Positions 30,756 through 34,195 of a DNA stretch of 46,231 bases are shown in pieces. The position numbers were made by a program, and so were the translations under genes. Each line of letters begins with the position of its first letter. Within the stretch, counting starts at the first letter, position 1. The stretch lies in contig JAUMZY010000016.1 in the NCBI GenBank assembly GCA_030527885.1, positions 1 through 46,231 of the forward strand, read 5' to 3'. This stretch comes from Corynebacterium sp. GTDB lineage: Bacteria; Actinomycetota; Actinomycetes; Mycobacteriales; Mycobacteriaceae. The notes beneath the pieces were generated by a model that worked only from the letters and a program-made list of their open reading frames with translations, was not told where the DNA came from and did no database searches.

Positions 30756-32396
30756 ATGTTAATCTTTAGTGCTATGACTATTGCTAACCCAACAAAAACC
30801 ACCAGTCTATCCCTACGACGAGGCGTATTCTGGAGCTGGTTTGCCCCTGCCGATCCACCGGATAACGACCGTAGTTTAAAGCCCGAAACCTGGACGAGCG
30901 GTAGGGCTGTTGCCCGGAATATGCTGTTTGCATACCCCGGTGTCTTGACAATAAGTGTCTTTTTCCAGGCGGGGAGTTCTGCTGTTGCTAGTTTCATTAG
31001 TATTCTTGTGGGTCGAATTATTGATTCCACTTTTAATACTGGGAACTTAGCCCAGATTACTCTGCCGCTAGTACTGTTAGCCCTCCTGGCTTACATGCAG
31101 TCATTGGGGGAGACCACCGCTAACGGATTCTCCTATGTTGGTACTGCCCGGGTAGTCCATAATGCTCGCCTCTATCTCACTGATAAGCTACTCCAAAGCC
31201 ATAACATCAAACTGAGTCCCGGCACCATCTTAAGTACTGTCGATGCTGATACAAAAACTGCTGCTGACTTGCGTGAAATAACCACATTTCCGGTGATGAT
31301 GTTCGGCTATATCTTTGGTGCAACCATTGGTATTGCTCCCATATCGCTAACAGTTGCATTGTGTCTGCCACTGGGTGCTCTCCTCACTGCTGGTGGGGCA
31401 GTGCTTACCTCTAAACCCATCACGCGGGTGTCTGCCAAGCGCCGGGAGGCGGAAGCTGGACTATCTGGACTGGCCACCGATGTGGCACAGGGCTCTCGGG
31501 TGGTCAAAGGCTTAGGGGCGGTAGATACCACCAAGCGCCGGTTCGACGATGTGAGCGAAACTGTCTTATTCGCGCTGGAAGCCGACGTTACGGTGAATAT
31601 GCGCATGGATTTTATTCGGCAGTTGATTCCAGCTGTATTATCCGTCGCGATTATCATATATGCTGCATGGTTGGCCGGCATTGGTAACATTACCTCTGGT
31701 GAGTTCGTTACTATTTCCGTGTTGGCGCCACCTGCTCTCCGAGTGTTGGGGTTTGCCATGAGCATGGTGTCTGTTGTCTGGGCCCGCGCTGTGGCAGCAG
31801 GGGACCGTATTAGCGAACTGCTCCGGTTAGTGGCCGAAGCTAAACAGTCGACCATGAGTGCGGAAGAACGTCGACAAGCAGAAGCATTATTGGCGGAATT
31901 ACAGCAAGAATCTGGTATGCATGTGTGGCAACTAACTGAGGAAAATTATCGTCATTACCACGCGATTGCCAGCCTTGATCAGGTGCTAGCCACCCCACAC
32001 CTCGTTACTGTGTTTGAAGGAACCCTGGAAGAGAATATCAATCCCAACGGTGACATCAGTCTTGGGCAAGTACGGTTGGCGTTGGATGCTGCCTCATGCG
32101 GTGACATTATTGACCGACTCGGCGGTTTTGGGCCGAACGGTGAACTGCCCACCACCCCGTTGGGGGAAGCCGGCCTCAACCTTTCCGGTGGCCAACGGCA
32201 GCGCGTAGCTTTGGCTCGTGCGCTTGCGCGTGACCCCCACGTGCTGCTTTTCGACGAGCCTACCACCGGGTTGGACGCTGTGACCTTGGATAACGTTGTA
32301 CAGGCCATCAAGGAGCTACGCGCCGATAAAACCACGTTGATTATGTCCGGACGTAAAACCTGGGCCCGTGCCGCAGGGGAGGAACATAACCGATGA
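30756..32396 (+). CDS. ABC exporter subunit A with degenerate NBD (no Walker A)
   Basis: A 546-residue half-exporter: an N-terminal six-helix transmembrane domain (about 45-355) and a C-terminal ATPase domain. The ATPase domain is incomplete: after ISELLRLVAEA comes a non-canonical helical stretch (about 365-410) with no GxxGxGKS/T. The fold resumes at PHLVTVFEGTLEENI, with an intact signature LSGGQRQRVALARAL (about 476-490) and Walker B VLLFDEPTTGLD. The H-loop His is also missing (LIMSGRKTW). It should pair with the next gene, which overlaps by four bases. ATG 30756 or 30774 may start it; neither has a clear ribosome site. The substrate is unknown. Confidence 0.88.
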   Translation: MLIFSAMTIANPTKTTSLSLRRGVFWSWFAPADPPDNDRSLKPETWTSGRAVARNMLFAYPGVLTISVFFQAGSSAVASFISILVGRIIDSTFNTGNLAQITLPLVLLALLAYMQSLGETTANGFSYVGTARVVHNARLYLTDKLLQSHNIKLSPGTILSTVDADTKTAADLREITTFPVMMFGYIFGATIGIAPISLTVALCLPLGALLTAGGAVLTSKPITRVSAKRREAEAGLSGLATDVAQGSRVVKGLGAVDTTKRRFDDVSETVLFALEADVTVNMRMDFIRQLIPAVLSVAIIIYAAWLAGIGNITSGEFVTISVLAPPALRVLGFAMSMVSVVWARAVAAGDRISELLRLVAEAKQSTMSAEERRQAEALLAELQQESGMHVWQLTEENYRHYHAIASLDQVLATPHLVTVFEGTLEENINPNGDISLGQVRLALDAASCGDIIDRLGGFGPNGELPTTPLGEAGLNLSGGQRQRVALARALARDPHVLLFDEPTTGLDAVTLDNVVQAIKELRADKTTLIMSGRKTWARAAGEEHNR

Positions 32397-34195
32397 CTCT
32401 ACGCCACGACGCACTGGCACCCGCCAGCTTCACTGAGACTTTCCGGTATTTCGGTACCCTCAACAATGCCCTGAGCCGCCGCTGGTGGACAGGTATCCTC
32501 ATTCTCCACTGTATTTACGTCGTCTTTGCCATGGTGGAAGCCAACGTGCTGGGCTACAGCGTGGCTGCCCTCCGCGGTACGCCTATTCCCATCGTGGGTT
32601 CCGGCACCACCGCCCTCATGTATCTGGTGGGCATCGCAGCTATCGCCATCTTGGTGAACCACTGCTTACGCACCTTAGCTAACTACTTCATTGCCCTGAA
32701 ACTCAAACGCATGAGCGTCGACCTCAAACGCACCTGTTTGAACTCGACGTTGCAAGCCCCTATCCCGGACGTCATGGCATTAGGCACCGGCAATGTCATT
32801 ACCCGTATGACCCACGATATTGACCACCCAGTGAATGAACTCAGCGACATCGGATCCCGCGTCATCGTCATGATCCTCACCATCCCCTTCACCTTGGTGA
32901 GCATGGCACTGCTGGATTATCGATTCGGCATCATAGCGGTGCTCATCATCCTCATTTTCTATCCCATCGGTAAACGCTGGGTGGGTCAACTGCCAGTCGT
33001 ATCTAACGCCGTCTCCACAGTGGAAGCTGAACGCAACGCCACCCTTCTAGATACTCTCCGGGGGCTGGGTACCTTACGGGCTTTCCATTACGGTGATTGG
33101 GCGTTAGAGCGCATGAAAACCAAAAGCTGGGATGCCCTTCAAACTACTGCTAGCCGCATTCCCTACCTCAACCGCCTGGTCTACCTTGCACAATTAATTT
33201 ATGGTGTGTGGATTATAACTGCGCTTTTCCTCGGTGCGTGGCTCATCAACCACGGTGATCTTGGTGTTGGTGCAGCCTCCGCCGCCGTGATGCTGGTGGT
33301 GCGGGCCGAAATCCAAATCCTCAACATGCTCTTTTTTGCAGGTAACCTGCAGGAATCCTTCACGAACCTTGGTCGGGCTGTTGCTTTGGCAAAGCTTTAT
33401 GTGCCTGGTAGTGACAAAACCGCTCCGGATCTCACTGAGCCTGCCACCGTGACCATACGAGACCTGGAATTTCACTACCCGAGCAGTACCGAACCAGTAC
33501 TTCCTACATTGAACCTAGAGCTGCAGGCCGGTACTACCACCGCCCTTGTTGGTGCTTCTGGTGCTGGTAAATCCACTTTGGCTTCTCTTATGTCGGGATT
33601 GTTGCGGCCTACTAGCGGTAGCATCACCGTCGGGGGCATCAACATTGCTGAAGTCTCTGATGTATGGACTGCTCGCAATGTAACTCTGATCAGTCAGGAA
33701 GTGCACGTTTTCTCTGGCGTGTTGCGTGACGATCTGCATCTTGCGGCTCCTGCCGCCAGTGATGCTGAGCTTCTTCAGGCGCTTGCTGACGTGGGTTTGC
33801 CAGAGGGGGGGACTGCATTTAATCGGTCTTTCCCTGAGGGGTTGGATACACCTGTTGGCGCTGGGGCGGCGGCGCTTACGCCTCAAGTGCAACAGCAAAT
33901 TGCCCTCGCGCGTGTCCTGTTGCGTAAACCTAATGTGCTCATTCTTGATGAGGCCACCTCTGAGGCGGGTTCGGATCAAGCCTACAACCTTGAAGCTGCC
34001 GCCCAATTAGTTACCGAAGGCCGCACCGCCCTCGTGGTGGCTCACCGTCTTGACCAAGCTGTGGTGGCTGATCGGATTATTGTGATGGAGGCTGGCCGCA
34101 TTGTTGAGGATGGTACGCATGCTGAACTCGTTGCACTTGGTGGGAGATATGCGCAACTATATGCCCGATGGAGTGGCTACAATCACAGCACATAA
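32393..34195 (+). CDS. ABC exporter subunit B with degenerate signature motif
   Basis: A 600-residue half-exporter with an N-terminal six-helix domain and a full-length NBD. Walker A GASGAGKST (about 387-395), Q-loop LISQEVHVF, Walker B VLILDEATS and H-loop VVAHRL are intact, but the signature is ALTPQVQQQIALARVL (about 494) instead of LSGGQ, and the D-loop is EAGS rather than ALD. It complements subunit A, so one complete composite ATP site is possible. ATG overlaps the previous stop (ATGA). Substrate unknown; peptides, lipids or drugs are all possible. Confidence 0.9.
   Translation: MTLRHDALAPASFTETFRYFGTLNNALSRRWWTGILILHCIYVVFAMVEANVLGYSVAALRGTPIPIVGSGTTALMYLVGIAAIAILVNHCLRTLANYFIALKLKRMSVDLKRTCLNSTLQAPIPDVMALGTGNVITRMTHDIDHPVNELSDIGSRVIVMILTIPFTLVSMALLDYRFGIIAVLIILIFYPIGKRWVGQLPVVSNAVSTVEAERNATLLDTLRGLGTLRAFHYGDWALERMKTKSWDALQTTASRIPYLNRLVYLAQLIYGVWIITALFLGAWLINHGDLGVGAASAAVMLVVRAEIQILNMLFFAGNLQESFTNLGRAVALAKLYVPGSDKTAPDLTEPATVTIRDLEFHYPSSTEPVLPTLNLELQAGTTTALVGASGAGKSTLASLMSGLLRPTSGSITVGGINIAEVSDVWTARNVTLISQEVHVFSGVLRDDLHLAAPAASDAELLQALADVGLPEGGTAFNRSFPEGLDTPVGAGAAALTPQVQQQIALARVLLRKPNVLILDEATSEAGSDQAYNLEAAAQLVTEGRTALVVAHRLDQAVVADRIIVMEAGRIVEDGTHAELVALGGRYAQLYARWSGYNHST

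What the first reader, a model, noticed from the sequence alone, without database searches (positions are those of the whole stretch)
30756..34195. ABC exporter pair that has split one ATP site between two half-dead NBDs
Subunit A has no Walker A or H-loop His but keeps LSGGQ and a Walker B with the catalytic Glu. Subunit B keeps Walker A, Q-loop, Walker B and H-loop but has LTPQV in place of LSGGQ. Together they can form exactly one composite site; the other would lack both the phosphate loop and the signature. Heterodimeric exporters such as TM287/288 and TAP have weakened sites, but outright loss of Walker A is more extreme. The reciprocal decay suggests long co-evolution rather than pseudogenisation, because both frames are intact and overlap by four bases.
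Basis: partly seen in the sequence, partly recalled or inferred. Interest (0 to 1): 0.75.

Follow-up and report, generated by a model that had tools for sequence, protein, structure and literature searches.

The report
ABC exporter with one ATP site
A corynebacterial two-subunit membrane pump has physically lost one of its two ATP-binding sites, and the same reciprocal loss appears in related pumps of many actinobacteria, which makes them good natural material for asking whether such pumps need the second ATP at all.

Summary
Subunit A (30756-32396) has no Walker A, no recognisable A-loop and no H-loop His, but keeps LSGGQ, Walker B and D-loop. Subunit B (32393-34195) has every ATP-side motif, but LTPQV in place of LSGGQ. 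They are homologues of TetA and TetB of Corynebacterium striatum plasmid pTP10, below the curated NCBIfam cut-offs. All 99 corynebacterial A subunits examined lack a P-loop. In the 91 pairs of the main group the key residues of the one possible site are invariant in both subunits, while the other site is mostly lost or replaced. The truncated domain is under purifying selection (dN/dS 0.08-0.22). Best explanation: an obligate heterodimeric exporter run by one composite ATP site, the other being a nucleotide-free interface. It is a new variant of degenerate-site exporters; ten literature searches found no description of it. ATPase stoichiometry, structure and substrate are untested here.

The parts
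30756..32396 (+). Subunit A (TetA-like), 546 aa: ABC exporter TMD plus an NBD that lacks its P-loop segment
   Evidence: PF00664 65-323; PF00005 427-504 to profile 79-137; NF000506, 402 bits
31809..31994 (+). Stretch between the end of TM6 and the Q-loop of A; A-loop, Walker A and first NBD helix are missing here (about 45 residues fewer than B)
   Evidence: which elements are missing is read from the alignment to B
31995..32000 (+). PH at the Q-loop position of A (Pro414-His415; His in place of Gln), 91 of 91 in the main group
32181..32195 (+). LSGGQ signature of A (residues 476-480): serves the live site; 91 of 91
32244..32258 (+). Walker B of A, LLFDE (497-501); belongs to the dead site; Asp 88 of 91, catalytic position E52/D27/N12 of 91
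32268..32276 (+). D-loop GLD of A (505-507): serves the live site; 91 of 91
32349..32351 (+). H-loop position of A (Gly532); His in 0 of 91
32393..34195 (+). Subunit B (TetB-like), 600 aa: TMD plus full-length NBD
   Evidence: NF000103, 578 bits
33476..33478 (+). A-loop Tyr362 of B
   Evidence: invariant in the 37-row alignment A4
33551..33577 (+). Walker A of B, GASGAGKST (387-395)
   Evidence: GAGKST 91 of 91
33695..33697 (+). Q-loop Gln435 of B
   Evidence: 91 of 91
33875..33889 (+). LTPQV in B where LSGGQ should be (495-499)
33938..33952 (+). Walker B of B, LILDE (516-520); D519 and E520 91 of 91
33962..33973 (+). EAGS in the D-loop of B (524-527), conserved replacement
   Evidence: A525 and S527 91 of 91, E524 and G526 90
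34043..34045 (+). H-loop His551 of B; 91 of 91
34199..34756 (+). YbhB/YbcL-family protein directly downstream; a relative lies near the pair in pTP10 and in 59 of 90 fetched relatives

Best explanation
A and B form an obligate heterodimeric exporter of the TetAB type with exactly one ATP site. ATP and Mg are held by B (A-loop Tyr, Walker A, Q-loop, Walker B Glu, H-loop His) and closed over by the LSGGQ and D-loop of A. Hydrolysis there drives the cycle (inferred). The opposite site cannot form: A lacks the A-loop, Walker A, Q-loop Gln and H-loop His, and B lacks the signature. That interface is most likely a nucleotide-free protein-protein contact that stays closed or acts as a hinge, with conserved new residues (His415 of A, the EAGS D-loop of B). 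Shown: the motif states, their conservation, the pairing, purifying selection, and the actinobacterial spread. Inferred: dimer geometry, one ATP per cycle, the hinge role, and export of small drugs or metabolites.
For: Key live-site residues invariant in 91 of 91 corynebacterial pairs: A LSGGQ and GLD; B GAGKST, Q435, D519, E520, H551. The other site in the same pairs: no P-loop in A, no Q-loop Gln and no H-loop His in A (0 of 91 each), catalytic position E52/D27/N12, B signature never LSGGQ. A second corynebacterial pair family (8 loci examined) shows the same, with the A Walker B Asp lost in 6 of 8. B lies directly downstream of A in 90 of 90 group-1 loci (in L040 split over two frames) and 8 of 8 group-2 loci. 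dN/dS of the A remnant 0.08-0.22 in 17 pairs. In 60 further Actinomycetes pairs: A without P-loop 60, SGGQ 60, H-loop His 0; B P-loop 60, Q 60, DE 60, H 60, A-loop aromatic 60, and none with SGGQ at the signature place. TetA of pTP10, whose operon is listed as a tetracycline exporter, also lacks the P-loop.
Against: No structure could be predicted (tool switched off) and no biochemistry exists in these data. His415 of A and EAGS of B are invariant, and the Walker B Asp of A is kept in 88 of 91, so the dead site is not simply relaxed and may have another ligand or role. dN/dS of the A remnant, though low, exceeds that of the same gene's TMD in 16 of 17 pairs, which fits some relaxation. Broken frames: A in at least three of the 90 fetched group-1 relatives (L050, L124, L127) and in one of 8 group-2 loci (L137); B in the closest relative (L040). 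TetB of the reference plasmid pTP10 is about 70 aa shorter than the window's B, so the published resistance phenotype (review table; original papers recalled) does not map cleanly onto this pair.
Confidence: 0.8

Rival explanations
1. Ordinary degenerate-site exporter: the second site still binds ATP as a non-hydrolysed glue, as in BmrCD or MsRv1273c/72c.
For: Same overall architecture: one consensus and one deviant site. In MsRv1273c/72c and BmrCD the degenerate site holds ATP (passages of PMC12038006; PMC10632425).
Against: In those structures the degenerate site holds ATP with Walker A and an A-loop Tyr. Here the P-loop is absent from A, the stretch that should hold the A-loop is missing, and the partner signature is lost too, so no usual phosphate or adenine contact is left.
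Confidence: 0.1
2. A no longer takes part in ATP use: B works as a homodimer or with another partner, and A is only a regulatory or membrane subunit.
For: B alone carries all ATP-side motifs. A has lost its P-loop and ends shortly after the H-loop position.
Against: B lacks a signature, so a B homodimer has no complete site. The A signature and D-loop, useful only across the interface, are invariant in 91 of 91. A and B are adjacent in 90 of 90 group-1 loci.
Confidence: 0.07
3. Pseudogene, recent deletion or sequencing error in this genome.
For: The window's assembly is a 53% complete draft in 25 contigs. A few relatives do have broken frames.
Against: 0 of 99 corynebacterial A subunits has a P-loop. 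The closest relatives have the same length between TM6 and Q-loop (L040 64, L042 65, window 65). dN/dS well below 1 among relatives.
Confidence: 0.01

Closest known systems
TetAB of Corynebacterium striatum plasmid pTP10 (NCBIfam NF000506/NF000103)
   Same: Homologous pair, same order, same neighbours (YbhB, pyrD, hypothetical, uppP); TetA also lacks Walker A and keeps LSGGQ, TetB has Walker A but no LSGGQ
   Different: A only 40% identical; both subunits below the curated cut-offs; pTP10 TetB about 70 aa shorter; substrate of the window pair unknown
Heterodimeric exporters with one degenerate site: BmrCD, MsRv1273c/72c (passages read); TM287/288, TAP (recalled)
   Same: Two half-exporters, one consensus site made by the P-loop side of one and the signature of the other
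   Different: There the degenerate site keeps Walker A and binds ATP; here Walker A, A-loop and partner signature are gone
ABCB11 (BSEP) degenerate NBS1 (passages of PMC7544095)
   Same: One site inactive, conserved non-canonical residues in it
   Different: A few substitutions in the site (S474E, E556M, G1178R, Q1180E by ABCB1 numbering); no loss of Walker A described
ABCB5beta (passages of PMC11391348)
   Same: An NBD truncated at its N-terminus that lacks A-loop and Walker A
   Different: A human isoform with an extra N-terminal NBD fragment, not an operon-encoded partner subunit with reciprocal signature loss
Pdr5/Cdr1-type and ABCG5/G8 asymmetric transporters (recalled, not looked up)
   Same: Reciprocal degeneration of one composite site
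   Different: Walker A is altered, not deleted; different fold type

Membership tests
TetAB (NF000506 / NF000103) | Score above the curated cut-off | tested here: not met
   402 against 1025 bits and 578 against 999
TetAB (NF000506 / NF000103) | tetA-tetB adjacent, same gene neighbourhood | tested here: met
   pTP10: tetA-tetB-YbhB-pyrD-hypothetical-uppP; window the same order
TetAB (NF000506 / NF000103) | A without P-loop, B without LSGGQ | tested here: met
TetAB (NF000506 / NF000103) | Exports tetracycline (and oxacillin) | not testable with these tools
   phenotype of pTP10 TetAB known only through passages of a review and recall
Heterodimeric ABC exporter with one degenerate site | Two half-transporters with ABC_membrane and ABC_tran domains | tested here: met
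Heterodimeric ABC exporter with one degenerate site | Exactly one consensus composite site | tested here: met
   motifs only; dimer geometry not tested
Heterodimeric ABC exporter with one degenerate site | Degenerate site keeps Walker A and A-loop and can hold ATP | tested here: not met
   P-loop in 0 of 99 corynebacterial A and 0 of 60 class A; A-loop aromatic in 1 of 60 class A. ATP binding itself not tested
Pseudogene | Broken frames or relaxed selection | tested here: not met
   open frames, dN/dS 0.08-0.22 in 17 pairs of relatives

The most novel reading that the evidence does not exclude
Across the Actinomycetota a large clade of heterodimeric exporters has dispensed with the second ATP altogether: one ATP per transport cycle, with the former second site rebuilt as a permanent nucleotide-free hinge between subunits (A Q-loop His against B EAGS-type D-loop in one subclade). 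TetA-type proteins are the end point, where the useless P-loop segment was deleted; on the tree such deletion happened at least twice.
Probability: 0.5. Interest if true: 0.8.

Novelty: new variant of a known kind. Interest (0 to 1): 0.62.

Why it matters
What the degenerate site of asymmetric ABC exporters does is a standing question; one proposal is that ATP stays there as glue (introduction passages of PMC12038006). In this clade that site cannot hold ATP in the usual way, so these pumps are natural experiments for whether one ATP is enough, and how the NBDs keep contact without the second nucleotide. The known tetracycline exporter TetAB belongs here, and the corynebacterial family includes what is probably a Corynebacterium glutamicum ortholog, so the test is accessible in a laboratory strain.

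Tried and rejected
Structure prediction of A and B: tool switched off, so no structural model and no fold search; no other tool was used for a model. Profile-profile comparison of A and B was used only to place the missing segment.

A first alignment of 30 loci mixed strands, because loci of minus-strand hits are given on the contig's plus strand; it is not used for counts.

One B in the class survey matched SGGE by pattern; it lies just before the degenerate signature and is not the signature. One A (L050; L144 is the same contig) matched the P-loop pattern at residue 11 of a stop-to-stop frame, far upstream of the NBD.

Considered and rejected: sequencing error and pseudogene (see rivals). 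That a P-loop half of A is encoded elsewhere was not searched for; it is unlikely, because A is continuous across the gap in its relatives.

Literature: ten searches over open-licence PubMed Central papers; one search failed on its terms. The listings, and the passages read of five papers, mention no missing Walker A in TetA and no such clade. The original TetAB papers (Tauch and co-workers, recalled) were not found in these listings, so they may have noted it. PMC4121816 is not held.

Full report
Observation. The two frames are as described and overlap by four bases. Subunit A (546 aa) has a normal exporter TMD, but its NBD matches Pfam ABC_tran only from profile position 79 of 137. LSGGQ, Walker B and D-loop are there; Walker A, Q-loop Gln and H-loop His are not, and the stretch that should hold the A-loop is missing. 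Subunit B (600 aa) has a complete NBD except that LTPQV stands where LSGGQ should be, and its D-loop reads SEAGS.

Identity. The best NCBIfam hits are the two subunits of TetAB (A: 402 bits, cut-off 1025; B: 578 bits, cut-off 999). TetA of pTP10 is 40% identical over 96% of A. On pTP10 the order tetA, tetB, YbhB-family, pyrD, hypothetical, uppP is the order in the window. Of 90 fetched corynebacterial loci, 57 have both YbhB and pyrD nearby, 2 YbhB alone and 31 neither (most loci were cut at 6 kb downstream, some earlier at contig ends). So this is most likely an old chromosomal locus from which the plasmid genes came (inference). TetA of pTP10 also lacks the P-loop and TetB also lacks LSGGQ.

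Conservation in Corynebacterium. A search of 242 genomes of the window's genus gave, besides the window, 90 group-1 loci in 87 other genomes (all listed hits down to 190 bits), fetched. Over the 91 group-1 pairs: A LSGGQ 91, GLD 91, PH 91, Walker B Asp 88, catalytic position E52/D27/N12, H-loop His 0; B GAGKST 91, Q 91, DE 91, H 91, signature never LSGGQ. No A has a P-loop after TM6: 0 of 99, counting 8 group-2 loci. Group-1 A runs 40-69 residues (median 57) from TM6 to the Q-loop, B a median of 105 (98 of 99 B; L040 left out because its frame is split). Group 2 (L130-L137, fetched; 8 of the more distant hits listed, about 30% identical) shows the same architecture. Key live-site residues of both subunits are fixed. 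Of the dead site, the P-loop, Gln, His and B signature are gone and the catalytic position drifts; but His415 of A and the EAGS loop of B are fixed new states, and the Walker B Asp of A is nearly always kept.

Named relatives. A scan of named genomes returned 36 loci, 34 of them labelled Corynebacterium. All 36 have an A with LSGGQ and no P-loop in the NBD, beside a B with a P-loop and no LSGGQ. The other two are MAGs: L159, labelled Actinomycetaceae, carries a TetAB-type pair (39% A; possibly misbinned, not checked), and L174, labelled Propionibacteriaceae, a distant one (26%).

Selection. In 19 non-overlapping pairs of relatives (A 80-97.5% identical), dN/dS of the truncated NBD could be computed in 17 and was 0.08-0.22, so it is maintained. 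It exceeds the value of the same gene's TMD in 16 of 17, which fits a somewhat relaxed domain. Against universal intactness, at least three of the 90 relatives have a broken A frame (L050, L124, L127), one of 8 group-2 loci does (L137), and the closest relative (L040, 66%) has B split over two frames.

Beyond Corynebacterium. With P0001 itself, 397 genomes of the order gave no match at E<=1e-30 outside the window's genus. With an HMM of 22 A subunits (A2), 193 of 394 genomes of the class, in 68 of 137 genera, match at E<=1e-30. I fetched 60 loci, chosen from the top and second tier of the listed hits and not at random. In 60 of 60, A has SGGQ but no P-loop and no H-loop His, while the neighbouring B has P-loop, A-loop aromatic, Q, DE and H; none has SGGQ at the signature place. 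In a phylum-level search 40 of 296 genomes match. Of 29 loci examined there (two, L273 and L276, already among the 60), 20 have a P-loop-less A, eight of them from other classes of the phylum; their partners were not examined. Nine have P-loop and LSGGQ like ordinary exporters. So the motif check does find P-loops when present. Those nine score 189-203 bits, the sixty 209-511, and some P-loop-less ones score lower (157-198), so ordinary exporters pass the E-value limit and 193 of 394 is an upper figure for matches at that limit.

Erosion, then deletion. In 59 of the 60 class A subunits the P-loop stretch is eroded but about full length (88-148 residues from TM6 to Q-loop); in L205, TetA-type and group-2 proteins and L174 it is 42-68. 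On a 72-row tree without the trait's columns, all 63 A subunits form one side of a branch against 9 B (SH-aLRT 100). L174 is sister to an eroded one (99), apart from the corynebacterial deletions, so at least two deletions are needed; whether groups 1 and 2 share one is open. The tree is a quick one, has 27 weak forks of 69, and warns of long outgroup branches.

A co-varying pair. In the 60 class pairs, an A with His at the Q-loop position always has a B with an xAGS-like D-loop (25), and all LDP-type D-loops go with a non-His A (34); one exception (L233). In the 91 corynebacterial pairs His is fixed and the B loop nearly so. This follows the main subclades and is not many independent events, but it makes a direct A-B contact in the dead site a testable guess.

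Mechanism. Following the standard composition of ABC sites (A-, H- and Q-loops, Walker A and B of one NBD with X-loop and signature of the other; passages of PMC7544095), only the site with B's ATP side and A's signature can form. In BmrCD and MsRv1273c/72c the degenerate site still holds ATP through Walker A (passages); here that is not possible. I infer one ATP per cycle and a nucleotide-free second interface. MsRv1273c/72c offers a precedent: in one ADP-bound state its NBDs touch only by direct contacts at the degenerate site, which then does not allow ATP binding.

Known or new. No solved structure is a close relative: the best PDB hits of A are P-glycoproteins, followed by MsbA and others, and most of the listed best-scoring stretches cover only the part from about the Q-loop onward (best 60 shown). 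Ten literature searches found nothing on a missing Walker A in TetA or on this clade (listed in Tried and rejected), but the library holds open-licence papers only. I rate it a new variant of degenerate-site exporters: same kind of machine, but without the motifs by which the degenerate site holds ATP.

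Noticed in passing
L138 (NC_004939.1, pTP10) 4656-6107: The RGI-based resistance prediction in PLSDB labels TetA an MFS efflux pump, although it is an ABC half-exporter.
   Followed up: no
L138 6108-7694: TetB of pTP10 is about 70 aa shorter than the window's B, between TM6 and Walker A.
   Followed up: partly
window 30560-30648 (-): A tRNA-Leu (gag) gene lies directly upstream of subunit A.
   Followed up: no
window 26939-27511 (-): Protein with a SLATT_4 two-TM effector domain (PF18186; PADLOC PDLC00696), a candidate phage-defence effector; no clear partner among the eight other window proteins scanned with PADLOC.
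   Followed up: no
L040: In the closest relative (66% identical A) the B frame is split in two.
   Followed up: no
L159: A MAG labelled Actinomycetaceae carries a TetAB-type pair; transfer or misbinning.
   Followed up: no
L205-L264: Two kinds of P-loop-less exporter pairs, told apart by A Q-loop His with B AGS D-loop versus no His with B LDP D-loop.
   Followed up: partly
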